A stretch of 64,000 nucleotides of DNA from Protonemura montana (lineage: Eukaryota; Arthropoda; Insecta; Plecoptera; Nemouridae), in NCBI GenBank assembly GCA_947568835.1, contig OX387608.1:17022535-17086534 (forward strand), written 5' to 3'. The notes below the pieces were generated by a model. It did no database searches, was not told the DNA's origin, and was given only the letters and a program-made list of their open reading frames with translations. The position numbers and the translations under genes were made by a program. How positions within the stretch are numbered: position 1 is the first letter of the stretch; each line of letters opens with the position of its first letter. Shown piece by piece: positions 3,156 through 58,851 of the stretch.

Positions 3156-3173
3156 CTAACAAGACAGAAAGTA
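3156..3173. other. Target-site duplication, left copy (family A)
   Basis: This 18-bp sequence matches 3727-3744 at 17 of 18 positions and flanks the family A element exactly, marking its insertion boundaries. Confidence 0.85.
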
Positions 3174-3726
3174 TTTTATTATTATCAACACTATAACCGT
3201 CTCAAAAATTGATGTCCAAACGGGGATTCGAACCCCGATCTCCACCTGTCGCGGGTGTTGCTCTAACCAATTGAGCTACTTGAACCCCGATCTCCACCTG
3301 TCGCGGGTGTTGCTCTAACCAATTGAGCTACTAGGACCCCGATCTCCACCTGTCGCGGGTGTTGCTCTAACCAATTGAGCTACTTGGACCCTGATCTCAA
3401 TTAGTTTTAGTTAATTAATTTAATTAGTCAATTATATAATTCAATTAGTTAATTCAATTAGTTAATTAAATAGCTCAATTGGTTAGAGCAACACCCGCGA
3501 CAGGTGGAGATCGGGGTCCTAGTAGCTCAATTGGTTAGAGCAACACCCGCGACAGGTGGAGATCGGGGTCCAAGTAGCTCAATTGGTTAGAGCAACACCC
3601 GCGACAGGTGGAGATCGGGGTTCGAGTCCCCGTTTGGCCATCAATTTTTGAGACGGTTATAGTGTTGATAATAATAAAAGACCACGCGCATTGCAAGCGT
3701 TTGCAATTTAAATAAGATGTCATCTA
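3174..3726. mobile_element. Family A element, inverted dimer with tRNA-like arms
   Basis: The element runs from TTTTATTATTATCAACAC on the left to the mirrored arm and a 3' tail ending in GATGTCATCTA. Both halves hold copies of a tRNA-like sequence in opposite orientation: the left half is on the minus strand with about three 52-bp units, the right half on the plus strand with about three. They are separated by an AT-rich palindromic spacer (about 3395-3475). The right half ends in a complete tRNA-like core (3568-3640) with an A-box (TAGCTCAATTGGTTAGAGC) and a B-box (GGTTCGAGTCC). The whole could fold into one long hairpin. An 18-bp target duplication on both sides shows it inserted as a unit. 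Confidence 0.85.
3568..3640 (+). pseudogene. tRNA-like core of family A
   Basis: It can be drawn as a cloverleaf: acceptor GTCCAAG against TTTGGCC (one base off), D-arm GCTC/GAGC, anticodon stem CACC/GGTG with a 7-nt loop CGCGACA, and T-arm CGGGG/CCCCG with loop TTCGAGT. The loop places CGA at 34-36, but position 33 is G rather than the near-invariant U. With its repetition in every family A copy, this argues for a SINE head rather than a working tRNA gene. Confidence 0.7.
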
Positions 3727-6403: not shown

Positions 6404-7005
6404 CGTCCAAAGGGCATCCAACACCCGACCCAGCGAAGTGTTGCTTAACTTTCATCCCTCCAACCTCTCTCCCGAACAGAACTGGTCATGTGTATGATGG
6501 TCACCCATCCAATACCTGACTCAGCGCAGTGTTGCTTAACTTTCATCCCTCCAACCTCTCTCCCGAACAGAACTGGTCATGTGTATGATGGTCACCCATC
6601 CAATACCTGACCCAGTGCAGTGTTGCTTAACTTTCATCCCTCCAACCTCTCTCCTGAACAGAACTGGTCATGTGTATGATGGTCACCCATCCAATACCTG
6701 ACTCAGCGCAGTGTTTCTTAACTTTCATCCCTCCAACCTCTCTCCCGAACAGAACTGGTCATGTGTATGATGGTCACCCATCCAATACCTGACCCAGCGC
6801 AGTGTTGCTTAACTTTCATCCCTCCAACCTCTCTCCCGAACAGAACTGGTCATGTGTATGATGGTCACCCATCCAATACCTGACCCAGCGCAGTGTTGCT
6901 TAACTTTCATCCCTCCAACCTCTCTCCCGAACAGAACTGGTCATGTGTATGATGGTTACCCATCCAATACCTGACCCAGCGCAGTGTTGCTTAACTTCGG
7001 CTTAA
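6404..7005 (-). repeat. 91-bp 5S rRNA-derived array, 6-7 copies
   Basis: The monomer is 91 bp. Read on the minus strand each has GTTAAGCAACACTGCGCTGG and ATTGGATGGGTGACC, matching the middle and 3' part of animal 5S rRNA (GTTAAGCAAC and TTGGATGGGTGACC are 5S internal promoter sequences). A non-5S stretch with GAACAGAACTGGTCATG on the + strand completes the unit. It is the same monomer as at 9847-10242, 54515-54887 and 57236-58003, so I place it in family C. Confidence 0.9.
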
Positions 7006-9622: not shown

Positions 9623-9846
9623 TAAGCAGACCAACATTTTTAAGTGATAGCAACTCCCTGGTCAAGTCTTTCTATCTGTCAATGTGAGTGGCACCCTGGT
9701 ACCGGGTCTGGGTTCGTGTCCCGGGGCCGACTCTTGCCACCCACAGCGACCCCAGGATGTCTCCCTACCCTTTGTTTCGTCACACCTGTAGCTTCCAGTG
9801 GCGCGCGATCAAGTAAAGTAGACCAAACCGTTTGGCGTTTTGGAAA

Positions 9847-9912
9847 AACCGGTCCTCGTGTGATCACCGAAATTAAGCAACACTGCGCTGGGTCAGGTAG
9901 TGGATGGGTGAC
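9847..9912 (+). pseudogene. 5S rRNA-derived SINE head (best-preserved)
   Basis: AACCGGTCCTCGTGTGATCA followed by CCGAAATTAAGCAAC and GTGGATGGGTGACC matches animal 5S rRNA from about position 30 to 90 with scattered changes. The 5' portion before it is diverged and the 3' end of 5S is replaced by the family C sequence ATCATACACATGACC. This is the only copy in the window that keeps the CTCGT-GATCACCGAA segment, so it marks the start of a family C element with a 5S head, as in SINE3-type elements. Confidence 0.85.
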
Positions 9913-10527
9913 CATCATACACATGACCAGTTCTGTTCGAGAGAGAGGTTGAAGGGATGCAAGTTAAGCAACACTGCGCCGAGTCAGGTATTGGATTTTT
10001 GACCATCATATACATGACCAGTTCTGTTCGGGAGAGAGGTTGGAGAAATGAAAGTTAAGCAATACTGCGCTTGGTCAGGTATTGGATGGGTGACCATCAT
10101 ACACATGACCAGTTCTGTTCGGGAGAGAGGTTGGAGGAATGAAAGTTAAGCAACACTGCGCTGGGTCAGATATTGGATGGGTGACCATCATACACATGAC
10201 CAGTTCTGTTCGGGCGAGAGGTTGGAGGGATGAAAGTTAGTACAGCAACTTCACTCGCCTTGCTTATCAACCTCTCGACAGCATAGATTTGTGGAGGAAT
10301 CCTGTTGTTCGCGTTGTACCGTCTTTCGGAAGGGACGTTAAGCCGGTGGTCCCCTTGGTCTTCGACAGGAGTAGGCTACGTGCCGGCACCGGGTTTCCCC
10401 TCCTCCCTTCTAGGCTAGGTTAGGTTCATCATCCTCATCATCATCCACTCATTCACCGACGCCATTAGACCAGTGCCGCATGACCAGATATCAAAACAGT
10501 GCGTCGTTAAACACCACAAATAAGATG
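9847..10527 (+). mobile_element. Family C SINE copy 1 (5S-headed), nearly complete
   Basis: Order along the + strand: 5S-derived head repeated as four to five 91-bp monomers (9847-10242), one 36-bp segment (about 10243-10283, CAACTTCACTCGCCTTGCTT), then a body and tail containing GGAAGGGACGTTAAGCCGGT and CACCGGGTTTCCCCTCCTCC, ending near TTAAACACCACAAATAAGA. This copy shows the ancestral order linking the two segments that occur elsewhere as separate arrays. It faces copy 2 across a 275-bp spacer. Confidence 0.85.
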
Positions 10528-10802: not shown

Positions 10803-11752
10803 GTGTTTAACTTAGCACTGTTTTGACATCTGGCCATGCGGCACTGGTCTAATGGCGTCGGTGAATGAGTGGATGATGATGAACCTAACCTAGCCTAGAA
10901 GTGAGGTGGGGAAACCCGGTGACGCCACATAGCCTACTCCTGTCGAAGACCAAGGGGATCACCGGCTTAACGTCCCTTCCGAAGGACGGTACAACGCGAA
11001 CAACAGGATTCCTCCACAAATCCATGCTGTCGAGAGGTTGATAAGCAAGGCGAGTGAAGTTGCTGTCGAGAGGTTGATAAGCAAGGCGAGTGAAGTTGGT
11101 GTCGAGAGGTTGATAAGCAAGGCGAGTGAAGTTGCTGTCGAGAGGTTGATAAGCAAGGCGAGTGAAGTTGGTGTCGAGAGGTTGATAAGCAAGGCGAGTG
11201 AAGTTGCTGTCGAGAGGTTGATAAGCAAGGCGAGTGAAGTTGCTGTCGAGAGGTTGATAAGCAAGGCGAGTGAAGTTGCTGTCGAGAGGTTGATAAGCAA
11301 GGCGAGTGAAGTTGCTGTCGAGAGGTTGATAAGCAAGGCGAGTGAAGTTGCTGTCGAGAGGTTGATAAGCAAGGCGAGTGAAGTTGGTGTCGAGAGGTTG
11401 ATAAGCAAGGCGAGTGAAGTTGCTGTCGAGAGGTTGATAAGCAAGGCGAGTGAAGTTGCTGTCAAGAGGTTGATAAGCAAGGCGAGTGAAGTTGCTGTCG
11501 AGAGGTTGATAAGCAAGGCGAGTGAAGTTGGTGTCGAGAGGTTGATAAGCAAGGCAAGTGAAGTTGGTGTCGAGAGGTTGATAAGCAAGGCGAGTGAAGT
11601 TGCTGTCGAGAGGTTGATAAGCAAGGCGAGTGAAGTTGAGTGGATGATGATGAATCTAACCTAGCCTAGAAGTGATGAGGGGAAACCCGGTGCCGGCACG
11701 TAGCCTACTCCAGTCTAAGACCAAGGGGACCACCGGCTTAACGTCCAGGATA
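10803..11752 (-). mobile_element. Family C SINE copy 2 with 36-bp array
   Basis: Read on the minus strand: a 36-bp array of about 17 units (11031-11638) followed by the family C body and tail (10803-11030) ending in GTTAAACAC-type sequence. A second truncated tail in the same orientation (11639-11752) abuts the far side of the array. The 36-bp unit is the segment present once in copies 1 and 4. No 5S head is present here. Confidence 0.85.
11031..11638 (-). repeat. 36-bp array, about 17 copies
   Basis: The + strand unit includes GAGAGGTTGATAAGCAAGGC and GAGTGAAGTTGCTGTC. GCTGTC and GGTGTC variants alternate irregularly. The 12-residue open-frame repeats on both strands come from a stop-free unit divisible by 3. 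Confidence 0.95.
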
Positions 11753-14425: not shown

Positions 14426-14950
14426 ATTCACGAAATCTAAAAAAACCTGCTGCCGAAATCGATAAAATAAATTTAAGCCCAACATCGCAAAGCCATGAAT
14501 ATGTAAAAGATGCGTCTGAAAATCAGCATATCTTCGATTGAATGCCTTACCACGAGCCAGCACCGGTATCATCGATATAAGAAGGGATATCGACACACCC
14601 CAAAAAACAGGCATAGGAAACCAAAAATAAAACCAGCATTTTGTAAACCACCCCTTGTGTACCGGATCCCCACTCTCCCCTATGTTGACCTGGGGTGCTG
14701 AACCTACTTTCATCACAGAGCTAACTTCAAAGGAACTGCAAGGACTTCCAAGGATCCTGCCGATCCGACGACAAAGCTGCTCCTTTCCCTTTCTCACAGG
14801 AATAGAATGAACAACTTAAATATTTCTTGCATTTATGATTTCTTGGGATAATAGTATTCAGTTCGTAAACTGAATTGAGTTTTCTGTCCAATTGATCTCA
14901 AAATAGTAAATAGCAATTTTTAAACCCGTAAAACCAGCTTGCAATTCACA
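14426..14950. other. Spacer, no gene seen
   Basis: No repeat or gene recognised. Confidence 0.5.
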
Positions 14951-15425
14951 GTCTCTTGGTTCTACTCCTTGCAGATCCGTCATTCTCATCAATTCCACTA
15001 AAATCGTCTCGAAAAGCCAGTGTCCAAGTAGCTCAATTAGTTAGAGCAACACCCGCGACAGGCGGAGATCGGGGTCCAAGTAGCTCAATTGGTTAGAGCA
15101 ACACCCGCGACAGGTGGAGATCGGGGTCCAAGTAGCTCAATTGGTAAGAGCAACACCCGCGACAGGTGGAGATCGGGGTCCAAGTCGCTCAATTGGTTAG
15201 AGCAGCACCCGTGACAGGTGGAGATCGGGGTCCAAGTAGCTCAATTGGTTAGAGCAACACCCGCGAAAGGTGGAGATCGGGGTCCAAGTAGCTCAATTGG
15301 TTAGAGTAACACCCGCGACAGGTGGAGATCGGGGTCCAAGTAGCTCAATTGGTTAGAGCAACACCCGCGGCAGATGGAGATCGGGATTCGAGTCCCCGGG
15401 TGGGCATCAATTTTTGAGAGAGTTG
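14951..15425 (+). mobile_element. Family A element with 52-bp array (about 7 units)
   Basis: The 5' region contains TCTTGGTTCTACTCCTTG and the inner arm ACTAAAATCGTCTC, shared with the copies at 18925-19320 and 41959-42585. A tandem array of the 52-bp unit (GTCCAAGTAGCTCAATTGGT through GGAGATCGGG) follows, then a complete tRNA-like core (15334-15406) and the start of the 3' arm (CATCAATTTTTGAGAGAG), which decays at about 15425. Each 52-bp unit holds the A-box but not the B-box; only the last unit has both. Confidence 0.85.
15334..15406 (+). pseudogene. tRNA-like core of family A
   Basis: A 73-nt tRNA-like sequence: acceptor GTCCAAG with the mostly complementary GGTGGGC, D-arm, diverged anticodon arm (CGCGGCA loop), T-loop TTCGAGT. 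A retroposon head, not a clear tRNA gene. Confidence 0.65.
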
Positions 15426-16255
15426 TAGTATTCCTAATGAAAAACTGTTAAACCCCGTCTTATTTCGTCGGATTTAGGAATCCGCCACGACATATGGGAC
15501 TAAAAACCAAATTCAAAACACAAAACAACAAAGAAATTGTCAAGTGGCACATCCTGGCAGAGCAGACCGCAGCCAAGCTTTACATACCGTACGTTCCTGA
15601 CCCGCATCCTGATCTAAACCTTACAAAAACAAACCGACCCCAAACCGGACGACGCGCGCATCCAATTTGCCGGTCGCTTTGTGAGGTGTGATCTCAAGAT
15701 GCCGCCGTCTGGGCTCATTACACCCCGAGGTGTTAACGCCCCCCTCCCCCCTCCCCCCACCACCCTTGTGTGGCAGGACGAGGGTCTGCTTGGGTCTAGG
15801 GGGTCCCACCGCGAGCTGCCTAGACCCTCTAGCCACGCTGAGAAGCCAGGCTCGCACAGACCAACGACTCATTGAAAACAAATTGAAAATAGCAGTTTTG
15901 AAATATTCCTATCATTGAAAACGAACTGGAAAGATGTGCTACCGAACCGGGATATTGTATTGTATTGTATTGTATTGTATTGTACCTTTATTTGTCCATA
16001 ATCACAGGGCTTACATTCAAATTGTAAAAGGATGTGGACCTGTCAAGATTAAAAATACACTATGATTACAAATAAATTGCAAAAAAACAAAGACAACGCT
16101 TAATACTAAAATACTAAGATAGTCATGTGAAATACTGAAGTAACAACAGTCATATCTTTATCCAATCATTCCCAACTAATTTATAAAATTCGTTAATATT
16201 ATGAAAACCTTTGTATAATACCAAGTTTTTAAATAGTGCGTCTAAACTTTGAAAA
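15426..16255. other. Spacer with C-rich and (ATTGT)n tracts
   Basis: A C-rich stretch lies at 15735-15765 and a pentanucleotide (ATTGT)n microsatellite at about 15953-15984. No gene recognised. Confidence 0.6.
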
Positions 16256-17742: not shown

Positions 17743-18475
17743 CATTATCAACACTATAACCGTCTCAAAAATTGATGCCCAAACGGGGACTCGAACCTCG
17801 ATCTCCACCTGTCGCTGGTGTTGCTCTAACCAATCGAGCTACTTGGACCCCGATCTCCACCTGTCGAGGGTGTTGCTCTAACCAATTTAGCTACTTGGAC
17901 CCCGATCTCCACCTATCGCGGGTGTTGCTCTAACCAATTGAGCTACTTGAACCCCGATCTCCACCTGTCGCGGGTGTTGCTCAAACCTATTAAGCTACTT
18001 GGACCCCGATCTCCACCTGTTACGGGTGTTGCTCTAACCAATTGAGCTACTTGGACCCCGATCTCCACCTGTCGCGGGTGTTGCTCTAACCAATTGAGCT
18101 ACTTGGACCCCGATCTCCACCTGTCGCGGGTGTTGCTCAAACCAATTGAGCTACTTGGACCCCGGTCTCCACCTGTCGCGGGTGTAGCTCTAACCAATTG
18201 AACTACTTGGACCCCGGTCTCCACCTGTCGCGGGTGTAGCTCTAACCAATTGAGCTACTTGGACCCCGATCTCCACCTGTCGCGGGTGTTGCTCAAACCT
18301 ATTGAGCTACTTGGACCCCGATCTCCACCTGTCACGGGTGTTGCTCTAACCAATTGAGCTACTTGGACCCCGATCTCCACCTGTCGCGGGTGTTGCTCTT
18401 ACCAATTGAGCTACTCGAACCCCGATCTCCACCTGTCGCGGCTGTTGCTCTAACCAATCGAGCTACTTGGTCACT
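17743..18475 (-). mobile_element. Family A element with 52-bp array (about 13 units)
   Basis: The arm ATTATCAACACTATAACCGT is at the left. The tRNA-like core follows (17776-17848, minus strand), then a long array of 52-bp units to about 18473. Several units carry independent changes (TCGAGGG, TTACGGG, GTGTAGCTC), showing that the array is not recent throughout. The 5' inverted arm found in other copies is missing here. Confidence 0.85.
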
Positions 18476-18924: not shown

Positions 18925-19320
18925 TTAGTTGAAATCTCATTTAAATTACAAACGCTTGCAATGCGCGGGGTATTTTATTATTATCAACACTATAACCGTC
19001 TCAAAAATTGATGCCCAAACGGGGACTCGAACCCCGATCTCCACCTGTCGCGGGTGTTGTTCTAACCAATTGAGCTACTTGGACCCCGATCTCCACCTGT
19101 CGCGGGTGTTGCTCTAACCCATTGAGCTACTTGGACCCCGATCTCCACCTGTCACGGGTGTTGCTCTAACCAATAGAGCAACTTGGACCCCGATCTCCAC
19201 CTGTCACGGGTGTTGCTCTAACTAAATGAGCTATTCGGACACTGGCTTTTTGAGACGATTTTAGTGTATTTTATGAGAATGGGCATCAATTTTTGAAACG
19301 GTTTTAGTGTTCATAATAAT
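18925..19320 (-). mobile_element. Family A element, full architecture
   Basis: From the left (3' end): GAAATCTCATTTAAATTACA, the palindrome-like ACAAACGCTTGC, the 3' arm, a tRNA-like core (19012-19084), three more 52-bp units, then the 5' region with CTTTTTGAGACGATTTTAGT and the outer inverted arm GGCATCAATTTTTGAAACGG ending in CATAATAATAAAAC. The two outer arms are inverted copies of each other. The flanks are similar (CCTCGTGTAGTTTT and TCCGTGTGTCGTTA) but too diverged to be a sure target duplication. Confidence 0.85.
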
Positions 19321-25109: not shown

Positions 25110-25256
25110 GTTTTTTAGATGAAATCTTATTTAAATTGCAAACGAATGCAATGCGCGGGGTATTTTATTATTAACAACACTATAACCGTCTCAAAAATTG
25201 TTGTTCAAAACGAGGACATTGATTTTTGAGATGGTTATAATGTTGATAATTATAAA
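25110..25256 (-). mobile_element. Family A element lacking the tRNA-like core
   Basis: It contains the 3' tail (TTTAAATTGCAAACGAATGC), one arm (ACACTATAACCGTCTCAAAA) and the inverted arm (TTTTTGAGATGGTTATAATG) separated by only about 20 bp. It is flanked by an exact 11-bp target duplication AAGTTAGCCTC (25099-25109 and 25257-25267). So the element inserted as a minimal foldback with no A- or B-box. Confidence 0.85.
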
Positions 25257-25267
25257 AAGTTAGCCTC

Positions 25268-31497: not shown

Positions 31498-32810
31498 TAG
31501 CAAGTCACTTTCAGAATCTTTGAACCCAGGTCTAGCATGATTTTAAAAACAATAGACCAATTTTTTCGAGCTTTTTGAATTTAAAAAATTTTTTATTTAA
31601 AAGCTTTGAACAAAGCAAAACCAAAATTTGCCAACAATTGATCGCATTCTAGTTTTATTCACATATTTTCAAGCGTTTGTCGTGATTTTCAATCATTTTC
31701 ACGCAAAGTCCAGCGGGGAATCGAACCCAGTGACGTTTCCTGGCCACGTTTTACAGAAAAAAAATCGATTTTTTTCTTCACACACTAAAAAAAAAGGAGG
31801 GGCCTATTTTTCAAAACGCTCATCACTCAACGCTACCGACTGACGGAACGAAACAAAAGAAAGCAAACCTAGAAGCCACGCCCCTAATCTTGCCCTCCGG
31901 TGAAACCAGAAGACAATCGCCAAATTGACTTTTTCCTTACATATATAAAACACGCGCACCGAACTTCGATTTCAAAGCAAATCTCTTGAAATCCTCTTTC
32001 AAAGTTGACATCCACTTCCCCAGGAGCAATCACACGAGTCTTTGTGAGTCCCATTTCTATCCCTAGATCCTTCAGGACATCGCCAGGATCCTGATCCTGA
32101 TCCTGACTTCCGGTGTCCTGAGCAAACCGGAAGCTCACTGGACCGTGATTTCACCAAAATCGTTTTACTATTTTTACTCGGGGGAACATTTCCGATTCAC
32201 GAACCCATCTGGTTTTAATTTAGACCTAAGAACATTACAGTAATTCAGAAAATAAATTCAGAGAAAGTGAAAATTGAAATGTTATTCAAATCGAATGATT
32301 CATAAAAACAACCGCTGATCTCCCATAAAAGGTGCCGGACAATGAGATAAACGTCAAATAGCTTTGCGCTCCTAGAGACCGTTTCTAAATTTAATACCTT
32401 TTATGATTTTTTTTATCGCTTCTGCTGCATTTCTCCAGACGCGCTGGATCTTTGACAATAAAACAACATAAGATGATAGATGATCTGGGCGGGTTTAGCC
32501 TGGCACGGCCACAGAGAACACCCACAAAGTCAACCATTTTAACACCATACCAACATTCACATGCATTTATACTTTATATCAAAAATAAAATATAAATATA
32601 AACAGATTTAAGATTATTTCACAGCAACAACAACCTGTTTATTATGACAGCTAGATTTCATGGCAAAGAAACAGGTACACAGAGGTAATAAATTAAAACG
32701 AGTCCATTGTCCAGTCATTGCTACAAATCTGACTTTTACTGAACTAGGTTTAATAACCATAAGTAGCAAGAAATCTTGAAGATAATTGGACCACCCTAAG
32801 CCAAACCAGG
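31498..32810. other. AT-rich spacer, no gene seen
   Basis: A B-box-like match on the minus strand near 31708-31728 (GGGTTCGATTCCCC) has no clear A-box partner. TCCTGATCCTGATCCTGAC repeats near 32085-32106. No gene recognised. Confidence 0.5.
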
Positions 32811-34175
32811 ATAGCTGGGCCACCAGGATTGAACCTGGGACCTCCTGAATGCAAGGCAGACATGGCGCTCTCACTACCAGGATAGCCGGCCACCAGGATC
32901 GAACCTGGGACCTCTCGAATGCAAGACAGACATGGCACTCTCACTACCAGAATAGCCGGCCACCAGGATCGCACCTGAGACCTCCTGAATGCAAGGCAGA
33001 CATGGCGGCTCTCACTACCAGGATAGCCGGCCACCAGGATCGAACCTGGGACCTCCTGAATGCAAGGCAGACATGGTGCTCTCACTACCAGGATAGCCGG
33101 CTACCAGGATCGAACCTGGGACCTCCCGAATGCAAGGCAGACATGGCGCTCTCACTACCAGGATAGCCGGCCATCAGGATCGAATCTGGGACCTCTCGAA
33201 TGCAAGGCAGACATGGCGCTCTCACTACCAGGATAGCCGGCCACCAGGATCGAACCGGGACCTCTCGAATGCAAGGCAGACATGGCGCTCTCACTACCAG
33301 GATAGCCGGCCACCAGGATCGAACCGGGACCTCTCGAATGCAAGGCAGACATGGCGCTCTCACTACCAGGATAGCCGGCCACCAGGATCGAACCGGGACC
33401 TCTCGAATGCAAGGCAGACATGGCGCTCTCACTACCAGGATAGCCGGCCACCAGGATCGAACCTGGGACCTCTCGAATGCAAGGCAGACATGGCGCTCTC
33501 ACTACCAGGATAGCCGGCCACCAGGATCGAACCTGGGACCTCTCGAATGCAAGGCAGACATGGCGCTCTCACCACCAGGATAGCCGGCCACCAGGATCGA
33601 ACCTGGGACCTCCTGAATGCAAGGCAGACATGGCACTCTCACTACCAGGATAGCCGGCCACCAGGATCGAACCTGGGACCTCCAGAATGCAAGGCAGACA
33701 TGGCGCTCTCACTACCAGGATAGCTGGGCCACCAGGATCGAACCTGGGACCTCCCGAATGCAAGGCAGACATGGCGCTCTCATTACCAGGATAGCCGGCC
33801 ACCAGGATCGAACCTGGGACCTCTCGAATGCAAGACAGACATGGCGCTCTCACCACCAGGATAGCCGGCCACCAGGATCGAACCTGGGACCTCCCGAATG
33901 CAAGGCAGACATGGCGCTCTCACTACCAGGATAGCTGGGCCACCAGGATCGAATCTGGAACCTCCCGAATGCAAGGCAGATATGGCGCTCTCACTACCAG
34001 GATAGCCGGCCACCAGGATCGAACCTGGGACCTCCCGAATGCAAGGCAGACATGGCGCTCTCACTAACAGGATAGCCGGCCACCAGGATCGAACCTGGGA
34101 CCTCCCGAATGCAAGGCAGACATGGCGCTCTCACTACCAGGATAGCCGGGCCACCAGGATCGAACCTAAGACCTC
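32811..34175 (-). repeat. 70-bp tRNA-like satellite, about 19-20 copies
   Basis: The unit is 70 bp (69 or 71 in some copies). On the minus strand each monomer reads GAGAGCGCCATGTCTGCC, then TTGCAT, then GGGAGGTCCCAGGTTCGATC and CTGGTGGCC. The GGTTCGATCC stretch is a good B-box/T-loop, with T-stem CCAGG/CCTGG. The TTGCAT loop resembles a tRNA-Ala(UGC) anticodon loop. An acceptor stem CCGGCTA/TGGCCGG can be drawn, but its 3' strand overlaps the 5' strand of the next monomer by CCGG. The A-box region is degenerate. It looks like a tRNA-derived sequence that became a satellite of tRNA length. Confidence 0.85.
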
Positions 34176-34508
34176 CTGAAACGCATCGCATGTCCGTTAA
34201 GAGGATTTGCCAGTTGAACCGGAAGTTGAAATCGCACTTTATGTTTGCTTTTGGTCCCAATGTACGTGACGTGAGAGATTGTTTTCTCGCATGTCGGTAA
34301 TCTCTGAAAGTTGCCTCGATGTTCAACTCACAGCCATCTTTATAAATAGCTGGCCGCTAGAAAACTTGCAAGTTTTACCAAACATTCTTGCTTTTTCAGT
34401 GCATGTGGATTTTATTAATTGATAAAAACAAACAAGAGTGCTGTGGATTACATACGGATACCGTGTTAGCTGCATTTGTTTTTCCGAAACGGTTCAAAAC
34501 CAAATTGT
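34176..34508. other. Spacer, no gene seen
   Basis: Nothing assignable. Confidence 0.45.
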
Positions 34509-35885: not shown

Positions 35886-36306
35886 TAGTTTTAACAAAAA
35901 CTATTTCAACTGGGTTTTCAATGCTAAGTGAAGAACAACTGAATTTCCCAACGTTTAGTAACTTGTACCTGTTACTTTATCAAGGGTAAGAGCAGTCCTG
36001 ACAATTTCCACACACATAATTGGTTAGTTTATACCTAAAAAACGCCAAAATATGTTCGGAATTGTATTTCAGAAAATACGTAATACATTAGTTTTTGAGT
36101 TATTGACCCTGATTATTTTATTTAGATGCATTTAGGAAGCTTGAACTTGGTAATTGTTATAATTTTATGTGGTTCTTTTGTTATTGGGACATTGTCAGGA
36201 CTGCTCTTACCCTTGATAAAGTAAGAGGTACAAGTTACGAAACGTTGGGAAATTCAGTTGTTCTTCACTTAGCATTCAAAACCCAGTTGAAATAGTTTTT
36301 GTTAAA
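35886..36306 (+). mobile_element. Family B element with both long arms
   Basis: The left arm (TTTTAACAAAAACTATTTCA to CTGACAATTT) is partly repeated in inverted orientation by the right arm (GTTATTGACCCTGATTATTT to AGTTTTTGTTAAAC). The right arm holds the GTAAG...GTTAC-GAAAC segment. Outer termini are missing at both ends. Confidence 0.85.
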
Positions 36307-36737
36307 CAACTTGACTCTTTCAGAAATTGTAACTTCGCAAATAAGAAGATAGTTCCAGGACGACACCTCGGATCTTGGTTCCTAAGCCAAGTAAATCGCA
36401 GGAATACCAACATTACTAACACGCACATTCTCTCTCTCTGTTGCTGTTCTCAAATTAACTGCGTTCCTCTTTTACTTTTCGCAAGGAACTAATCTGTCAC
36501 TTTGTCTCTGCGTTTTGTTCCCGTGCCAAGACTTGAGCGAGACTAAAGCCAGACAAATGGTCGATTAGAAGATGTTTCTCCACTCCACGTTTACACCAAG
36601 AGACAGAAATAACAACTAAATATTCATAGGACTCTAAAGTTGACCCACAAAATACGGTGCTAAAATTATACCTTTCACCATTCAGGTTCAAATAGTTAAC
36701 TATGAAATTAAGTATACAAAAATTAATTAATTATTTA
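36307..36737. other. Spacer, no gene seen
   Basis: Nothing assignable. Confidence 0.45.
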
Positions 36738-37180
36738 TAGATGAATTCTGATTTAAATTGCAAACGCTTGCAATGCGCGGGGTATTTTATTGTTATCAAC
36801 AATATCAAAGTCTCAAAAATTGATGCCCAAACGCGGACTCGAACCCCGATCTCCACCTGTCGCGGGTGTTGCTCTAACCAATTGAGCTACTTGGACCCCG
36901 ATCTCCACCTGTCGCGGGTGTTGCTCTAACCAATTGAGCTACTTGGACCCCGATCTCCACCTGTCGCGGGTGTTGCTCTAACCAATTGAGCTACTTGGAC
37001 CCCGATCTCCACCTGTCGCGGGTGTTGCTCTAACCAATTGAGCTACTTGGACCCCGATCTCCACCTGTCGCGGGTGTTGCTCTAACCAATTGAGCTACTT
37101 GGACCCCGATCTCCACCTGTCGCGGGTGTTGCTCTAACCAATTGAGCTACTTGGACACTGGCTTTTTGAGACGATTATAC
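36738..37180 (-). mobile_element. Family A element with 52-bp array (about 6 units)
   Basis: From the left: 3' tail (TTTAAATTGCAAACGCTTGC), 3' arm, tRNA-like core from about 36822, about six highly similar 52-bp units, and the inner 5' arm (GGCTTTTTGAGACGATTATA) at about 37157. The near identity of the units points to recent expansion or homogenisation. Confidence 0.85.
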
Positions 37181-37595
37181 AACTATGGTGTGGATAATAA
37201 TAAAGTTGAAACTATTGTGCAACTCTGCACGATGTTGCAAGGAAATTTTGACCCACAACAGAAAAATAAATGCAAACTTAATCTGCGACTTTACACCAAA
37301 TTCTCTACGCCACCGCGACCAAGATGCACCGCCACTGGAATCTGTTCCCATAATAGCTCACGTACCAACTTGCTAAAGACAAACAGTCTGGCAGAGTCGA
37401 GAGCAAACAAACGACGATCAGCTGTGCCACTTGGCAGCACCCACAGCAGCACCCACTCATTATGTACAGAAGCTACCAGCTGGCAGCTGTCTCGAATCAC
37501 CGCCAGCAAGACACGACACGGTACGCCCCTTTGAGCACACTTTTCAAAATTCATTGACAAGGCCGTGCTTTTTGGTAGTGGAAAATAAATGGAGA
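37181..37595. other. Spacer with overlapping unrecognised open frames
   Basis: A 130-codon plus-strand frame (37142-37534) starts inside family A sequence and shows no recognised domain. Probably not a gene. Confidence 0.4.
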
Positions 37596-41944: not shown

Positions 41945-41958
41945 ATTTGAATAAAGTT

Positions 41959-42585
41959 GAAATCTTATTTAAATTGCAAACGCTTGCAATGCACGGGTTA
42001 TTTTAATATTATCAACACTATAACCGTCTCAAAAATTGATGCCCAAACGGGGACTCGAACCCCGATCTCCACCTGTCGCGGATGTTGCTCTAACCAATTG
42101 AGCTACTTGGAACCCGATCTCCACCTGTCGCGGGTGTTGCTATAACCAATTGAGCTACTTGGACCCCGATCTCCACCTGTCGCGGGTGTTGCTCTAACCA
42201 ATTGAGCTACTTGGACCCCGATCTCCACCTGTCGCGGGTGTTGCCCTAACCAATTGAGCTACTTGGACCCCGATCTCCACCTGTCGCGGGTGTTGCTATA
42301 ACCAATTGAGCTACTTGGACCCCGATCTCCACCTGTCGCGGGTGTTGCTCTAACCAATTGAGCTACTTGGACCCCGATCTCCACCTGTCGCGGGTGTTGC
42401 CCTAACCAATTGAGCTACTTGGACCCCGATCTCCACCTGTCGCGGGTGTTGCTCTAACCAATTGAGCTACTTGGACACTGGCTTTTCAGACGATTTTAGT
42501 GTATTTTATGAGAATGACGGATCTTCAAGGAGTAGAACCAAGAGGCATCGAATTTTGAGACGGTTATAGCGTTCATAATAATAAA
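41959..42585 (-). mobile_element. Family A element, complete, with 52-bp array and target duplication
   Basis: Flanked by ATTTGAATAAAGTT (41945-41958) and ATTTGAATAACGTT (42586-42599), 13 of 14 matching. From the left: 3' tail, 3' arm, tRNA-like core (about 42040-42112), about seven further 52-bp units, inner 5' arm (GGCTTTTCAGACGATTTTAG), the linker with GGAGTAGAACCAAGAG, and the outer 5' arm inverted relative to the 3' arm (GAGACGGTTATAGCGTTCAT). The best single definition of a full-length family A element here. Confidence 0.9.
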
Positions 42586-42599
42586 ATTTGAATAACGTT

Positions 42600-43183
42600 A
42601 CTCTGAGATATGTTTTGAAACTGACAAACGAGTGGTCTTCCATATACATGAATGTCTCACATGATATACGACTTCGGAGTCTGCATATGAAGCAATATTT
42701 AGAATGAATTGCATGGCATGCGATGCACTGGTCGCCATGTTGATTTATCGCACGTCGGAGCCGATCTGTCGCTCTGTGAGCGGTGAGCGCTCGGAGAGTG
42801 CACGCGGTGATTGATTCGTGCTAAGATACAGATGGGGGGTCGGGGAGGTGGGGGTGGCTCGAAAGTGGATTGAAATGTTATTTTGCTGAAACTTGGTCGG
42901 CGAGTTGGAAACTTTTTGGATATTTGAGGGAGTTGCATCGTATTATAGGTTTTAAAATACTTGCGTTCACAAAAGTTAGTTACAAATGTTAACGAGCTCA
43001 TTAAGATTAGAAGTTGTTGACAGAATCTTTGTTGAGCTTTGCTTTGTTGCTCGAAATATTTTAATTTATATTTTCGAACAGTAAAGCAGAGAAAAATTTC
43101 GTTTCTTACTTGATTTCCTGTAGATTTGACTTTCATTTGAATGCTAAAATTGATAATTGGTATATTAATTGGGTTTGTCGGAC
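42600..43183. other. Spacer with an unrecognised open frame
   Basis: A 170-codon minus-strand frame (42699-43211) runs into the telomere-type repeat. It has no recognisable domain and I do not call it a gene. Confidence 0.4.
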
Positions 43184-43520
43184 CTAACATAACGTAACCT
43201 AACCTAACCAAACAGAACCTAACTTAACATAACCTAACCTAACCTAACCTAACCTAACCTAACCTATCCTAACCAAACTTAACATAACATAACCTAACCT
43301 AACCTAACCTAACCTAACCAAACGTAACCTAACTTAACATAACCTAACTTAACCAAACCTTACCTAACCTAACCTAACATCACCTAACCTATCCTTACCT
43401 AACCTATCCTTACCTAACCTAACCTAACCTAACCTAACCTAACCTAACCTAACCTAACCTAACCTAACCTAACCTAACCTAACCTAACCTAACCTAACCT
43501 AACCTAACCTAACCTAACCT
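43184..43520 (-). repeat. Internal telomere-type repeat (TTAGG)n
   Basis: On the + strand AACCT is repeated. The left part (43184-43415) is interrupted by variants such as AACATAACCT and TATCCTTACCT, while 43416-43520 is an almost perfect run of about 20 units. (TTAGG)n is the telomeric repeat of most arthropods. Both flanks continue as ordinary sequence, so this is an interstitial block, not a chromosome end. Confidence 0.92.
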
Positions 43521-44667: not shown

Positions 44668-45184
44668 TTAAAAAAAAACCATTTCAACTGTGTTTTGAAT
44701 GCTAAGTGAAGAACAACTAAATTTCCCAACGTTTCGTAACTTGTACCTGTTACTTTATCAAGGGTAAGAGCAGTCCTGACAATTTTCCAATAACAAAAGA
44801 ACCACATAAAATTATAACAATTACCAAGTTCAAGCTTCCTAAATGCATCTAAATAAAATAATCAGGGTCAATAACTTAAAAACTAACGTATTTTGTATTT
44901 TCTGAAATAAGAACTCGAACATTAGTTTTTAAGTTATTGACCCTGATTATTTTATTTAGATGCATTTAGGAAGCTTAAACTTGGTAATTGTTATAATTTT
45001 GTGTGGTTCTTTTGTTATTGGAAAATTGTCAGGACTGCTCTTACCCTTGATAAAGTAACAGGTACAAGTTACGAAACGTTGGGAAATTTAGTTGTTCTTC
45101 ACTTAGCATTCAAAACCCAGTTGAAATAGTTTTTGTTAAAACTAGTGCTAAGTTAACATCAAGTAGACATGAGTCTTAAAAACA
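44668..45184 (+). mobile_element. Family B element, long palindrome with exact 17-bp target duplication
   Basis: Two arms of about 245 bp pair almost end to end around 44905-44930. The left arm is truncated inside AACCATTTCAACTG; the right arm continues to the full 3' terminus GAGTCTTAAAAACA. Flanks at 44651-44667 and 45185-45201 are identical over 17 bp (ATAATAACGTGAAATGT). The right arm carries TTGATAA (45047-45053), GTAAC/GTTAC (45055-45059 with 45068-45072), GAAA (45073-45076) and CGTTGGG. A long, precise target duplication and 5' truncation argue for retroposition rather than cut-and-paste. Confidence 0.9.
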
Positions 45185-45201
45185 ATAATAACGTGAAATG
45201 T

Positions 45202-45895: not shown

Positions 45896-46235
45896 AACAA
45901 AGTGGCACAGAATCGAGCAATGACGGAAACAGCTAAACTAATTGGCAGCACTGTCGGGTGGTCAACTTTTTAAGTAGCAAGTTGCAAAGTGAAAGTTTCT
46001 CCGATTAACTTTGTTCTCGCGGCAAGTTGGAAGTAGTGGTTTCAACGCTCTGTCTTGGTGTGGTCTTCTAGGGGAGTGGAAGGGGAAGGGGAAGGGGAAG
46101 GGGGGGAGAGGGGGGGTCAGAGACCAGGAAACTTTCAAGGGATGTCCAGGCGATGCGGCGTAGATCACTCTACTTTTATTTGTTTCTATCAATTTATTGT
46201 CTTTCATACTCGAACGTTACCAGCTTGCAATTGTA
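45896..46235. other. Spacer with G-rich tract
   Basis: 46075-46118 is G/A-rich with runs of 4-8 G, which could form a quadruplex. No gene. Confidence 0.5.
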
Positions 46236-46237
46236 CT

Positions 46238-47175
46238 TTTATCAACACTTAACCCGTCTCAAAAATTGATGCCCAAACGGGGACTTGAACCCCGATCCCC
46301 ATCTGTCGCGGGTGTTGCTCTAACCAATTGAGCTACTTGAACCCCGATCTCCACCTGTCGCGGGAGTTGCTCTAACCAATTGAGCTACTTGGACCCCGAT
46401 CTCCACCTGTCGCGGGTGTTGCTCTAACCAATTGAGCTACTTGGACCCCGATCTCCACCTGTCGCGGGTGTTGCTATAACCAATTGAGCTACTTGTACCC
46501 CGATCTCCACCAGTCGCGGGTGTTGCTCTAACCAATTGAGCTACTTGGACCCCGATCTCCACCTGTCGCGGGTGTTGCTCTAACCAATTGAGCTACTTGA
46601 ACACCGATCTCCACCTGTCGCGGGTGTTGCTCTAACCAATTGAGCTACTTGGACCCCGATCTCCACCTGTCGCGGGTGTTGCTCTAACCAATTCAGCTAC
46701 TTGTACCCCGATCTCCACCTGTCGCGGTGTTGCTCTAACCAATTGAGCTACTTGAACACCGATCTCCACCTGTCGCGGGTGTTGCTCTAACCAATTGAGC
46801 TACTTGGACCCCGATCTCCACCTTTCACGGGTGTTGCTCTAACCAATTGAGCTACTTGGACCCCGATCTCCACCTGTCACGGGTGTTGCTCTTAGCAATT
46901 GAGCTACTTGGACCCCGATCTCCACCTTTCACGGGTGTTGCTCTAACCAATTGAGCTACTTGGACCCCGATCTCCACCTGTCACGGGTGTTGCTCTTAGC
47001 AATTGAGCTACTTGGACCCCGATCTCCACCTGTCGCGGGTGTTGCTCTAACCAATTAAGCTACTCGGACCCCGATCTCCACCAGTCGCGGGTGTTGCTCT
47101 AACCAATTGAGCTACTTGGACCCCGATCTCCACCTGTCGCGGGTGTTGCTCTAACCAATTGAGCTACTTGAACAC
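46238..47175 (-). mobile_element. Family A element with the longest 52-bp array (about 17 units)
   Basis: Left arm TTATCAACACTTAACCCGTC, tRNA-like core from about 46270, then an array to about 47172. Sub-blocks of two to four units with shared variants (CACCTTTCACGGG with CTTAGCAATTG; TTGAACACCG; TTGTACCCCG) recur, evidence of higher-order duplication. One unit is 51 bp (GTCGCGGTGTT). The 5' region is missing; the array ends at TTGAACACAGTGG. Confidence 0.88.
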
Positions 47176-51620: not shown

Positions 51621-51870
51621 ATGCGGGTGTTGCTCTAACCAATCGAGCTACTTGGACCCCGATCTCCACCTGTCGCGGGTGTTGCTCTAACCAATTGAGC
51701 TACTTAGACCCCGATCTCCACCTGTCGCGGGTGTTGCTCTAACCAATTGAGCTACTTAGACCCCGATCTCCACCTGTCGCGGGTGTTGCTCTAACCAATT
51801 GAGCTACTTGGCCACTTGCTATTTAAGACTATTTTAGAATATTTGATGAGAATGACGAATCCTTTTAGCC
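51621..51870 (-). mobile_element. Family A element, partial, about 4 units of 52 bp
   Basis: Begins inside a unit (GCGGGTGTTGCTCTAACC) and ends in a diverged inner 5' region (CTATTTAAGACTATTTTAGA followed by GATGAGAATGACG). The 3' arm, tail and B-box are all missing. Confidence 0.82.
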
Positions 51871-52160: not shown

Positions 52161-52163
52161 TTA

Positions 52164-53632
52164 ACTTCACTCGCCTTGCTTATCAACCTCTCGACACCAA
52201 CTTCACTCGCCTTGCTTATCAACCTCTCGACAGCAACTTCACTCGCCTTGCTTGTCAACCTCTCGACACCAACTTCACTCGCCTTGCTTATCAACCTCTC
52301 GACACTAACTTCACTCGCCTTGCTTATCAACCTCTCGACAGCAACTTCACTCGCCTTGCTTATCAACCTCTCGACACCAACTTCACTCGCCTTGCTTATC
52401 AACCTCTCGACACCAACTTCACTCGCCTTGCTTATCAACCTCTCGACACTAACTTCACTCGCCTTGCTTATCAACCTCTCGACAGCAACTTCACTCGCCT
52501 TGCTTATCAACCTCTCGACACCAACTTCACTCGCCTTGCTTATCAACCTCTCGACAGCAACTTCACTCGCCTTGCTTATCAACCTCTCGACACCAACTTC
52601 ACTCGCCTTGCTTATCAACCTCTCGACACCAACTTCACTCGCCTTGCTTATCAACCTCTCGACACCAACTTCACTCGCCTTGCTTATCAACCTCTCGACA
52701 GCAACTTCACTCGCCTTGCTTATCAACCTCTCGACAACAACTTCACTCGCCTTGCTTATCAACCTCTCGACACCAACTTCACTCGCCTTGCTTATCAACC
52801 TCTCGACAGCAACTTCACTCGCCTTGCTTATCAACCTCTCGACAACAACTTCACTCGCCTTGCTTATCAACCTCTCGACAGCAACTTCACTCGCCTTGCT
52901 TATCAACCTCTCGACAGCAACTTCACTCGCCTTGCTTATCAACCTCTCGACAACAACTTCACTCGCCTTGCTTATCAACCTCTCGACAGCAACTTCACTC
53001 GCCTTGCTTATCAACCTCTCGACAGCAACTTCACTCGCCTTGCTTATCAACCTCTCGACAGTAACTTCACTCGCCTTGCTTATCAACCTCTCGACAGCAA
53101 CTTCACTTGCCTTGCTTATCAACCTCTCAACAGCAACTTCACTCGCCTTGCTTATCAACCTCTCGACAGCAACTTCACTCGCCTTGCTTACCAACCTCTC
53201 GACACCAACTTCACTCGCCTTGCTTATCAACCTCTCGACAGCAACTTCACTCGCCTTGCTTATCAACCTCTCGACAGCAACTTCACTCGCCTTGCTTATC
53301 AACCTCTCGACAGCAACTTCACTCGCCTTGCTTATCAACCTCTCAACACCAACTTCACTCGCCTTGCTTATCAACCTCTCGACAGCATAGATTTGTGGAG
53401 GAATCCTGTTGTTCGCGTTGTACCGTCTTTCGGAAGGGACGTTAAGCCGGTGGTCCCCTTGGTCTTCAACAGGAGTAGGCTACGTGCCGGCACCGGGTTT
53501 CCCCTCCTCCCTTCTAGGCTAGGTTAGATTCATCATCATCCACTCATTGACCGACGCCATTAGACCAGCGCGGCATGACACGTTGTCAAAACAGTGCTAA
53601 GTTAAACACCACAAATAATAATAATAATTGTC
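52164..53632 (+). mobile_element. Family C SINE copy 3 with 36-bp array (about 34 units)
   Basis: The array of the 36-bp unit (AACTTCACTCGCCTTGCTTA) fills 52164-53388, then comes the family C body/tail (TAGATTTGTGGAGGAATCCT, GGAAGGGACGTTAAGCCGGT, CCGGCACCGGGTTTCCCCTC) and the end TTAAACACCACAAATAATAA with an (AAT)n tail. There is no 5S head; the array replaces it. Unit variants CACC, CAGC, CAAC and CACT after CTCGA are mixed. Confidence 0.9.
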
Positions 53633-54299: not shown

Positions 54300-54887
54300 A
54301 TGAAAGAAAAGTTGAAAGTGCGGATGATGAGCCTAACCTAGCCTAGAAGGGAGGAGGGGAAACCCGGTGCCGGCACGTAGCCTACTCCTGTCGAAGACCA
54401 AGGGGACCACCAGCTTCACGTCCCTTCCGAAGGACGGTACAACGCGAGCAACAGGATTCCTCCACAAATCCATGCTGTCGAGAGGTTGATAAGCAAGGCG
54501 AGTGAAGTTGCTGTACTAACTTTCATCCCTCCAACCTCTCTCCCGAACAGAACTGGTCATGTGTATGATGATCACCCATCCAATACCTGACCCAGCGAAG
54601 TGTAACTTAACTTTCATCCCTCCAACCTCTCTCCCGAACAGAACTGGTCATGTTTATGATGGTCACCCATCCAATACCAGACCCAGCGCAGTGTTGCTTA
54701 ACTTTCATCCCTCCAACCTCTCTCCCGAACAGAACTGGTCATGTTTATGATGGCCACCCATCCAATACCTGACCCAGCGCAGTGTTGCTTAACTTTCATC
54801 CCTCCAACCTCTCTCCCGAACAGAACTGGTCATGTTTATGATGGCCACCCATCCAATACCTGACTCAGCGCAGTGTTGCTTAACTTT
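54300..54887 (-). mobile_element. Family C SINE copy 4 with 5S-derived array
   Basis: On the minus strand: about four 91-bp 5S-derived monomers (54515-54887), one 36-bp unit (about 54475-54512), then body/tail to about 54300. Same order as copy 1, confirming that the 5S-derived array and the 36-bp segment belong to one element. Confidence 0.88.
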
Positions 54888-57235: not shown

Positions 57236-58003
57236 TTATACACTGTGCTGGGTCACCGTATTGCATGGGTGACCATCATATACATGACCAGTTCTGTTCG
57301 GGAGAGAAGTTGGAGGGATGAAAGTTAAGCAACACTGCGCTGGGTCACCGTATTGCATGGGTGACCATCATACACATGACCAGTTCTGTTCGGTAGAGAA
57401 GTTGGAGGGATGAAAGTTAAGCAACACTGCGCTGGGTCACCGTATTGCATGGGTGACCATCATACACATGACCAGTTCTGTTCGGGAGAGAGGTTGGAGG
57501 GATGAAAGTTAAGCTACACTGCGCTGGGTCAGGTATTGGATGGGTGACCATCATACACATGAGCAGTTCTGTTCGGGAGAGAGGTTGTAGGGATGAAAGT
57601 TAAGCAACACTGCGCTGGGTCAGGTATTGGATGGGTGACCATCATACACATGACCAGTTCTGTTCGGGAGAGAGGTTGGAGGGATAAAAGTTAAGCAACA
57701 CTGCGCTGGGTCAGGTATTGGATGGGTGACCATCATACACATGACCAGTTCTGTTCGGGAGAGAGGTTGGAGGGATGAAAGTTAAGCAACATTGCGCTGA
57801 GTCAGGTATCAGATGGGTGACCATCATACACATGACCAGTTCTGTTCGGGAGAGAGGTTGGAGGGATGAAAGTTAAGCAACATTGCGCTGAGTCAGGTAT
57901 CAGATGGGTGACCATCATACACATGACCAGTTCTTTTCGGGAGAGAGGTTGGAGGGATGAAAGTTAAGCAACACTGCGCTGGGTCAGGTATCAGATGGGT
58001 GAC
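57236..58003 (+). repeat. 91-bp 5S rRNA-derived array, about 8-9 copies
   Basis: Monomers of about 91 bp contain GTTAAGCAACACTGCGCTGG and GTATTGGATGGGTGACCATC. Two sub-types are present: the first units have GTCACCGTATTGCATGGGTG and the rest GTCAGGTATTGGATGGGTG. Family C body and tail are not present downstream; the array ends in GGGTGACCACCGAACGGTTT. Confidence 0.92.
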
Positions 58004-58851
58004 CACCGAACGGTTTGGCTGGTATTTTGAGGTCAGGTGGTAATTAAGATTAATCGGGCGTTAGGAAGTCATATTCAACGAACAAATGAACCGCGACGTT
58101 GGCTGAAACTGCAGGTGAAGTCTGGAGTCGGGTGTAAAATTTTAGACAAAGTATTTATGATAAGTTAATTGACAAAAGCCTAATAATTTCTACCCACGAA
58201 CTGCCGAACAATTGTCCAGCCCATTCTTTGAGCTTGAACATCACAAAAACCATTCAAACATAACCTAAATTTGTCGACTTTTTTACTTGAAAAAAACACC
58301 CCTTGACATCTGACAAGCGCCAACCTCACAGCCTATTGCGATCACGTGTCAATGCACCGCCTTCCGAATCGTGACCACGTGTTGCTCGGCAGCTCGTTTA
58401 GAAGGCGTCAGGTTTCTGACGAAGCCCACGCTAAACGAGGTGTTTAGTCGAGCTAACAGGTCGTTAAGTTAAGTCGGTGACACGGCGATTACAGGCATTA
58501 AAACACGGCCTTGTTTTTCCATGACAACGCATGTCGCGTTACTGGAGGAGCGTCACGTGACAGAATTCAACTTCTTGTTTAAACTGGGAATAACAAAGAC
58601 AAAAGAAAAAGTGAAGTTGAGTTAAAATTAGATTAAAAAAGCTCAAAAATAATTTAAAATAATTATGCAAAAAGCTAATAAATCCGGATCTTTAATTTGC
58701 AAGTAAATTACTCCTCAATTAAATCAGAATTTTGTAGAAGTTTTATAAAGTTACGTTCTGTACTTTGCATCAAAAATGTAATTGAAATCAGAATAAACGA
58801 GCAAAACAAATAAAACACTTTGAATTGTATTATAATTAATCATAAATATGA
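58004..58851. other. Spacer, no gene seen
   Basis: Nothing assignable. Confidence 0.45.

What the first reader, a model, noticed from the sequence alone, without database searches (positions are those of the whole stretch)
41945..42599. Family A: a tRNA-headed retroposon with inverted arms whose A-box half expands into a 52-bp array
Seen: the element is bounded by a 14-bp target duplication, with a tRNA-like core, a 3' arm with a conserved tail, a 5' arm that is the inverted copy of the 3' arm, and 52-bp units containing the A-box but not the B-box. The same plan recurs at 3174-3726, 14951-15425, 17743-18475, 18925-19320, 36738-37180, 46238-47175 and 51621-51870, with 3 to 17 units. Known: tRNA SINEs carry A and B boxes once. 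Inference: only the last unit has both boxes, so the array multiplies TFIIIC/Pol III A-box sites upstream of a single B-box. I know of no SINE family with this combination of inverted arms and a variable A-box array.
Basis: partly seen in the sequence, partly recalled or inferred. Interest (0 to 1): 0.85.

Follow-up and report, generated by a model that had tools for sequence, protein, structure and literature searches.

The report
tRNA-carrying hitchhiker of Penelope retroelements
A very common short mobile DNA in an unnamed animal-like genome carries a broken tRNA-like piece and has the two-ended signature left by Penelope retroelement enzymes, while its repeated 52-letter units mostly look like local copying after the element landed.

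Summary
The element at 41945-42599 is real, but not a tRNA-headed SINE with fixed inverted arms. Its unit is a ~331-nt non-coding monomer: a 169-nt block, a tRNA-like domain, an arm and a tail. Of the first 71 tail sites on contig C1, 43 have a 5' inverted segment of variable length, whose outer end falls at one internal position (M277-285) in 31 of 43, ~45 nt short of the other end. Target duplications are clear in 20 of 34 two-ended copies, median 13 bp. This is the "tail" signature of Penelope-like elements (PLEs), whose enzyme starts at two adjacent internal RNA sites and extends both DNA strands (PMC11167929). PLE genes are present; one locus has an 856-aa frame, direct and inverted pLTRs and the same end plan. 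Family A is best read as a non-autonomous PLE; its specific helper is not identified. It carries a tRNA-like domain roughly where two local PLEs carry a hammerhead-like motif. The 52-bp arrays are rare among tail sites (2 of 71 in view), lie towards contig ends and share private variants within loci, so they probably grow in place. Upstream sequence and a five-T run argue against a Pol III SINE cycle.

The parts
41945..41958 (.). left copy of the target-site duplication
   Evidence: sequence; TSD statistics
41958..42000 (-). tail, between the inner (M281) and outer (M324-331) end positions read as reverse-transcription start sites; holds stem-loop TTGCAAGCGTTTGCAA
42000..42043 (-). 3' arm (AT-rich, ends AATAATAAAA at the inner site in most copies)
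42040..42112 (-). tRNA-like core with the only B box
   Evidence: ARAGORN; Rfam RF00005
42059..42476 (-). array of eight 52-bp units (tRNA 5' part with A-box-like stretch)
   Evidence: TRF
42470..42546 (-). 3' part of the non-tRNA block X (M99-169)
42544..42587 (+). inverted 5' segment (M239-282), outer end at the inner site
42586..42599 (.). right copy of the target-site duplication (overlaps the last two letters of the arm match)
3171..3724 (.). two-ended copy; both strands carry 3 units (outermost right one partial) and share a GTCCTAG variant; TSD TAACAA[G/A]ACAGAAAGTA by eye
14944..15444 (+). copy with 7 units, ends at the inner site (M280), no tail, no inverted segment
17744..18478 (-). 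copy with 13 units, ends near the inner site (M274), no inverted segment
18930..19324 (-). two-ended copy {M324, M281}, 4 units, no convincing TSD
36740..37204 (-). copy with 6 identical units, tail at one end and a short inverted arm at the other
46230..47175 (-). copy with 17 units ending at the inner site (M282), no inverted segment
51623..51861 (-). fragment: 4 unit matches plus block X, no core
25118..25257 (-). two-ended copy without array {M326, M281}, exact 11-bp TSD AAGTTAGCCTC
44674..45191 (.). PLE (P2 family) pLTR relic with the same {inner, outer} end pair and exact 17-bp TSD

Best explanation
Family A is a short non-autonomous element moved by Penelope-like (PLE) machinery. Its monomer is block X, tRNA-like domain, arm, tail. 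The enzyme nicks the two strands of an often AT-rich target 9-20 bp apart. It starts cDNA at the outer site (M324-331) on one strand and at the inner site (M281) on the other, copying overlapping parts of two template RNAs or of two repeats of a tandem RNA. The two cDNAs meet head to head, giving the variable inverted 5' segment; the ~45 nt between the start sites is the tail. Tandem source copies yield dimers. The 52-bp arrays probably began through the GTCCAAGT / GTTCGAGT similarity, can pass through RNA, and mostly grow in place towards chromosome ends. Shown: end positions, TSDs, dimers, PLE structure in the same genome, array statistics. Inferred: that a PLE protein moves it, that two RNAs or repeats are copied, how arrays begin and that they grow in place.
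For: First 71 tail sites listed on C1: 43 have an inverted 5' segment, outer end at M277-285 in 31 of 43, at M220-276 in 4, at M324-331 in 8; all 8 belong to tandem dimers. Recount with one duplicate dropped: 30 of 42 inner/outer, 0 resolved as outer/outer (2 unresolved), and inverted and sense segments overlap by >10 nt in 36 of 42. TSDs: 20 of 34 against 2 of 400, median 13 bp, 72% AT. Published PLE biochemistry: two adjacent internal start sites, both strands extended, tail = stretch between them (PMC11167929, abstract and main text). Published PLE copies: direct pLTRs, a 5' inverted pLTR 37 bp shorter, 9-bp TSD, 31-bp tail (PMC3846280, passages). PLE RT query: 107 match rows in the genome. 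L143: 856-aa frame with RVT_1 and GVY...YIG (by motif), direct and inverted pLTRs, TSD TGAACCTATTT by eye. P2 pLTR relics in the window: of 11 two-stranded clusters, 9 have both ends at the two sites, 7 of these inner/outer. Arrays.
Against: No PLE sharing the family A tail was found: the P2 and P1 tails are no closer than shuffled sequence, and the monomer has no match of note in seven PLE loci, five of which are one family (P2). The flank next to the inner site ends in T in 16 of 34 (TT in 10), against 0.18-0.38 at positions -14 to -4, so annealing of a T-rich nick to the A-rich inner site, as in twin priming, is not excluded; PLE endonuclease preference for ATT would give the same. The GIY-YIG Pfam model finds one match in the genome, of undetermined nature. 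14 of 34 two-ended elements have no TSD scoring 9. 6 of 42 inverted copies have outer ends elsewhere, two of them cut by the view. Family A has no hammerhead-like core. Subtelomeric bias is partly shared: 18 of the 40 best arm+tail matches lie within 3 Mb of an end, and X-bearing copies 10 of 25 in the first 1.5 Mb of C1 against 7 of 9 arrays, one-sided P = 0.06. Unit divergence within and between loci differs little, 0.050 against 0.060.
Confidence: 0.8

Rival explanations
1. A tRNA SINE moved by a LINE; inverted 5' segments come from twin priming, in which the second nicked strand anneals to a preferred A-rich point of the RNA.
For: tRNA-like core with A and B boxes, variable TSDs, conserved 3' tail with 5' truncation, many RT frames in the genome (not classified here), T at the end of the inner flank in 16 of 34.
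Against: Twin priming on one RNA should give non-overlapping segments; here they overlap by >10 nt in 36 of 42. 18 of 34 inner flanks do not end in T. PLE copies of the same genome and window show the same end pairs. The tRNA-like part is not at the 5' end. No frame of 150 aa or more lies in the 3 kb around two tail-only copies, but only those two were looked at.
Confidence: 0.12
2. The 52-bp array is a selected device that multiplies A-box (TFIIIC/Pol III) sites.
For: Each unit keeps an A-box-like stretch; the array can be carried through RNA (shared GTCCTAG variant on both strands of the copy at 3171-3724); 8700 exact unit junctions in the genome.
Against: 36 of 40 array-rich matches lie within 3 Mb of a contig end, 27% expected; identical non-consensus units share a locus in 34 of 68 pairs against a shuffled mean of 3.8, as slippage or unequal exchange would give. 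Unrelated minisatellites of many periods share the window. At most one B box per core remains, and a five-T run lies just downstream.
Confidence: 0.08
3. A foldback or MITE-like DNA transposon with terminal inverted repeats.
For: Inverted arms with flanking duplications.
Against: The two ends are different points of one sequence (M281 and M324-331), inverted lengths vary, TSD length varies 9-20, and 28 of 71 tail sites have no inverted segment.
Confidence: 0.02

Closest known systems
Penelope-like elements (PLEs), canonical EN+ Penelope/Poseidon type
   Same: Two adjacent end positions with a tail between them, a 5' inverted copy ending at the inner one, often AT-rich variable TSDs, tandem repeats; local PLE relics in the same window show the same end pairs.
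   Different: No coding capacity; no hammerhead-like core. A tRNA-like domain ends about 39 nt before the inner site; L143 and L145 have a CTGAAGA...GAAACGTC motif 60 and 72 nt before theirs (distances by subtraction; Rfam reports no hammerhead there).
Metazoan non-LTR retrozymes
   Same: Short non-coding monomers in tandem, suspected PLE helpers (PMC7761336, passages).
   Different: Retrozymes are defined by hammerhead ribozymes and circular RNA; no such motif found here, circular RNA not testable.
tRNA-derived SINEs
   Same: tRNA-like core with one B box per monomer, thousands of copies.
   Different: tRNA-like part is in the 3' half, followed by a five-T run; inserted sequence extends upstream of it; ends are PLE-like.
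Short non-autonomous Penelope elements of heliconiine butterflies
   Same: Short non-autonomous Penelope elements are reported to accumulate (PMC6685494, two passages).
   Different: The passages mention no tRNA-like domain or array; no sequence was compared.

Membership tests
Penelope-like element (as non-autonomous member) | Pair of adjacent start positions with a 30-50 nt tail between them | tested here: met
   inverted outer end M277-285 in 31 of 43; sense 3' ends mostly M320-331; read from copies, not from an enzyme assay
Penelope-like element (as non-autonomous member) | Direct copy plus shorter 5' inverted copy, flanked by a variable TSD | tested here: met
   43 of 71 tail sites with inversion; TSD in 20 of 34
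Penelope-like element (as non-autonomous member) | Tandem (pLTR-type) arrangement | tested here: met
   head-to-tail M331|M1 joins in L042, L048, L049, L105, L128
Penelope-like element (as non-autonomous member) | Sequence link to an autonomous PLE of the same genome | tested here: inconclusive
   PLEs present but no shared tail in the seven loci read, five of one family
Penelope-like element (as non-autonomous member) | Hammerhead motif in the pLTR (reported in many PLEs) | tested here: not met
   no CTGANGA...GAAA core in the monomer dimer; no Rfam ribozyme at E<=1 in 9 loci, though Rfam is also silent on L143 and L145
Autonomous PLE | RT and GIY-YIG frame inside the element | tested here: not met
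   331-nt monomer cannot hold one
LINE-mobilised tRNA SINE | tRNA-related head at the 5' end of the inserted sequence | tested here: not met
   X block of 169 nt upstream
LINE-mobilised tRNA SINE | 3' end shared with a LINE | not tested
Metazoan retrozyme | Self-cleaving hammerhead | tested here: not met
   motif scan; Rfam
Metazoan retrozyme | Circular RNA | not testable with these tools
   no RNA data
Twin-primed LINE copy | Inverted and sense segments do not overlap on the template | tested here: not met
   overlap >10 nt in 36 of 42

The most novel reading that the evidence does not exclude
A tRNA-like RNA domain has taken the place of the hammerhead ribozyme in a Penelope-mobilised satellite element, and the genome's copies reveal a rule of the PLE reaction: an insertion uses the inner start site on one strand and the outer on the other, whereas the in vitro study saw no difference between strands. 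Independent choice of sites cannot easily give both no resolved outer/outer pair among tail-selected copies and so few inner/inner pairs (at most L135) among the 9 resolved two-ended copies selected for lacking an exact tail. One PLE relic of each exceptional kind exists in the window, so the rule is not absolute.
Probability: 0.33. Interest if true: 0.78.

Novelty: new variant of a known kind. Interest (0 to 1): 0.6.

Why it matters
PLE transposition is poorly understood; the key published result I read is an in vitro observation of two internal start sites on both strands in one lizard element. Here a genome with an arthropod-type telomere repeat shows what looks like the same signature across a family with thousands of tail copies, so the reaction can be read base by base from genomic copies, including a preferred one-inner-one-outer pairing that would point to unequal roles of two enzyme subunits. 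A high-copy PLE satellite with a tRNA-like domain would also widen what PLE enzymes can move in trans, and suggests that some inverted-arm 'SINEs' may be misfiled PLE satellites.

Tried and rejected
Regular-expression annotation of loci timed out and was replaced by blastn. A hammerhead-like string upstream of the element in L014 lies outside it (by eye). I looked in L061 and L068 for a partner frame because they carry the tail without the core; both look like 5'-truncated copies, and L061 is a 55-bp tail-only insert flanked by TAAAGGCAATTTG (duplication by eye). The GIY-YIG Pfam model found one match, yet L143 has a GVY...YIG motif, so the model's silence says little. Tail similarity between family A and the P2 or P1 PLE: no better than shuffled. 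Arrays much more alike within than between loci: weak (0.050 against 0.060); the private-variant test was the informative one. A sharp cDNA stop at the tRNA-like fold: only partly held. Inner ends of inverted segments fall at M231-242 in 14 of 34, but sense 5' ends do so in 1 of 34; over the 71 sites 39 of 114 ends lie in M225-248 against 9.4 if uniform, but the 24-nt bins from M193 to M288 are all raised (18, 29, 19, 14), so truncation near the 3' end explains part of it. A B-box pattern search with a wrong first letter gave 0 and was replaced. Foldback transposon and patchwork readings rejected. Not resolved: which PLE moves the family; what the tRNA-like part does; whether the RNA is circular.

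Full report
What is there. The copy at 41945-42599 reads on the minus strand as: inverted segment, part of a block X, eight 52-bp units, a full tRNA-like core, an arm, a tail, with ATTTGAATAA[A/C]GTT on both sides. It has 8 A-box-like and 1 B-box-like stretches. The genome (258.5 Mb, 34 contigs) has 3174 exact copies of the 24-nt tail and none of its reversed control.

The monomer. Longer copies and dimers show a ~331-nt repeat, called M here: X 1-169, tRNA-like 170-242, arm to 281, tail 282-331 (M is a composite typed by hand). Head-to-tail joins M331|M1 occur in several loci. The L042 monomer folds at -96.9 kcal/mol, z -3.9, with the end of X pairing with the arm around the tRNA-like part. 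By my reading the anticodon loop has no U33, so this is not a working tRNA. A run of five T begins 5 nt after the tRNA-like end.

The ends. I took the first 71 exact-tail places listed on C1 (L039-L068, L083-L122, L018). Two pairs of sites (L042/L043, L045/L046) belong to the same elements. 43 of 71 have an inverted 5' segment. Its outer end lies at M277-285 in 31 of 43, at M220-276 in 4, and at M324-331 in 8. The 8 were checked: in five the sense run continues past the tail into a further repeat (L040, L046, L049, L098, L109), in three the inverted run does (L045, L093, L105); L045 and L046 are one element. Recounting with that duplicate dropped gives, of 42: 30 inner/outer, 6 with the outer end elsewhere (L045 and L105 cut by the view; L052, L092, L093, L110 not), 4 with the outer site on the inverted side and a continuing sense run, 1 inner with the sense end at M315, 1 inner with a continuing sense run. 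In the longer view, L040, L045 and L049 end at M275, M281 and M281 on the other side, so they too pair inner with outer; L098 and L109 stay unresolved. Inverted and sense segments overlap on M by more than 10 nt in 36 of 42. In an overlapping set of 34 two-ended elements from the loci then held and the window, TSDs scored >=9 in 20 against 2 of 400 shuffled flank pairs, median 13 bp, range 9-20, 72% AT. The flank at the inner site ends in T in 16 of 34 and in TT in 10; T makes up 0.44-0.47 of the last three positions and 0.18-0.38 before them. That fits either PLE preference for ATT sites (PMC11167929) or annealing of a T-rich nick to the A-rich arm end.

Copies selected the other way. Of 32 C1 arm clusters without an exact tail nearby I fetched the first 20. 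Seven two-ended ones again pair M281-284 with M326-331 (L124, L126, L130, L131, L132, L138, L140); L135 pairs 284 with 292, L136 pairs 281 with 306, and L141 runs off the view. L127, L128, L133, L137 and L142 end at M281-284 without a tail and without inversion, so sense strands can also start at the inner site. The arm 24-mer occurs 2316 times exactly.

Comparison with PLEs. PMC11167929 (abstract and main text read) reports that a purified Anolis PLE cuts and extends both strands, starts at two adjacent internal RNA sites in an AC-rich stem loop without difference between strands, and that the genomic 'tail' is the stretch between the two. PMC3846280 (passages) describes rotifer Penelope copies with direct pLTRs, a shorter 5' inverted pLTR, a 31-bp tail and a short TSD. 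L143 has an 856-aa frame with RVT_1 (2.8e-13) and a GVY...YIG motif, direct pLTRs 98.6% alike, a 471-bp inverted copy at 100%, TSD TGAACCTATTT and a ~50-nt tail at the frame's start (by eye). L145, of a second type, has a 70-bp inverted repeat and TSD ATATATACTTAT (by eye). In the window 17 clusters match the P2 pLTR; 11 are two-stranded, of which 2 (1017, 48785) have an end elsewhere; of the other 9, 7 pair inner with outer, one inner with inner (35887-36307), one outer with outer (4689-4962); 4 of the 9 have a TSD scoring >=9. 7 of 9 alone is not strong (P = 0.09 at one half). L143 and L145 carry a CTGAAGA...GAAACGTC hammerhead-like core 60 and 72 nt before the inner site (positions, distances by subtraction); the slice of L148 scanned has none, and Rfam reports no hammerhead in L143 or L145, so this rests on the motif alone. 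The monomer has no such core; its tRNA-like part ends about 39 nt before the inner site. Shuffled M dimers match the core in 11 of 500.

Where cDNAs stop. In the 34-element set the inverted segment's inner end lies at M231-242 in 14, sense 5' ends in 1. Of 114 ends in the 71-site sample, 39 lie in M225-248 (9.4 if uniform), but the 24-nt bins from M193 to M288 are all raised (18, 29, 19, 14). A stop at the tRNA-like fold would explain the recurrent ~45-bp arm but is only a suggestion.

Arrays. The unit-unit junction occurs 8700 times exactly, yet only 2 of the 71 tail sites show one in the ~700-nt view, and 40 of 71 do not reach the unit. 36 of 40 array-rich loci listed lie within 3 Mb of a contig end, where 27% of sequence lies; the same holds for 18 of the 40 best arm+tail matches. 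On C1 up to 22.19 Mb, 7 of 9 array loci are in the first 1.5 Mb against 17 of 100 tail copies (Fisher P = 0.0003). Against X-bearing copies (10 of 25) the contrast is weaker (one-sided P = 0.06), and X-bearing copies are themselves enriched there (P = 0.03). In 24 arrays with 205 units, identical non-consensus units share a locus in 34 of 68 pairs against a shuffled mean of 3.8 and maximum of 13. Mean divergence is 0.050 within and 0.060 between. In the copy at 3171-3724 both strands carry a GTCCTAG variant at the second unit from the core, so arrays can also pass through RNA.

Literature. Searches for Penelope with hammerhead, tandem, inverted and pLTR, with non-autonomous, tRNA, SINE and tandem (20 of 25 listed), named forms of non-autonomous Penelope, SINE with A box, B box and minisatellite, Penelope with SINE, mobilized, tail and GIY-YIG, and subtelomeric minisatellites with tRNA-derived, arthropod and Penelope listed no paper that I recognised, from titles and abstract starts, as describing a tRNA-bearing PLE satellite. 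PMC6685494 mentions short non-autonomous Penelope elements (two passages). The library lacks most subscription papers, so absence is weak evidence.

Verdict.

Noticed in passing
window 6415-6997, 9869-10239, 54517-54887, 57240-58005: 91-bp arrays of a 5S-rRNA-like sequence (Rfam 5S hit at 9826-9938); those at 9869 and 54517 adjoin a shared block that contains a 36-bp piece which is itself arrayed at 11025-11638 and 52163-53387.
   Followed up: partly
window 32805-34180: 70-bp array of ~20 units with a B-box-like stretch by eye; neither ARAGORN nor Rfam reported it.
   Followed up: no
window 43182-43520: Interstitial (ACCTA)n, the TTAGG telomere repeat, 68 copies at 87% match.
   Followed up: no
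window 1017-55663, 17 clusters: Relics of a PLE (P2) pLTR, nine with both ends at the two sites.
   Followed up: partly
G000 C11:54367-932285 and C16:29378161-29528256: Many of the 150 listed reverse-transcriptase matches crowd at these contig ends, perhaps telomere-homing LINEs.
   Followed up: no
L145 1646-1691 and 3177-3222: Sub-threshold histone 3' stem-loop matches in the inverted ends of a PLE (24.9 bits, cut-off 34).
   Followed up: no
G000 C1:30-33 Mb: Exact copies of an X-block 23-mer become dense towards the right end of C1.
   Followed up: no
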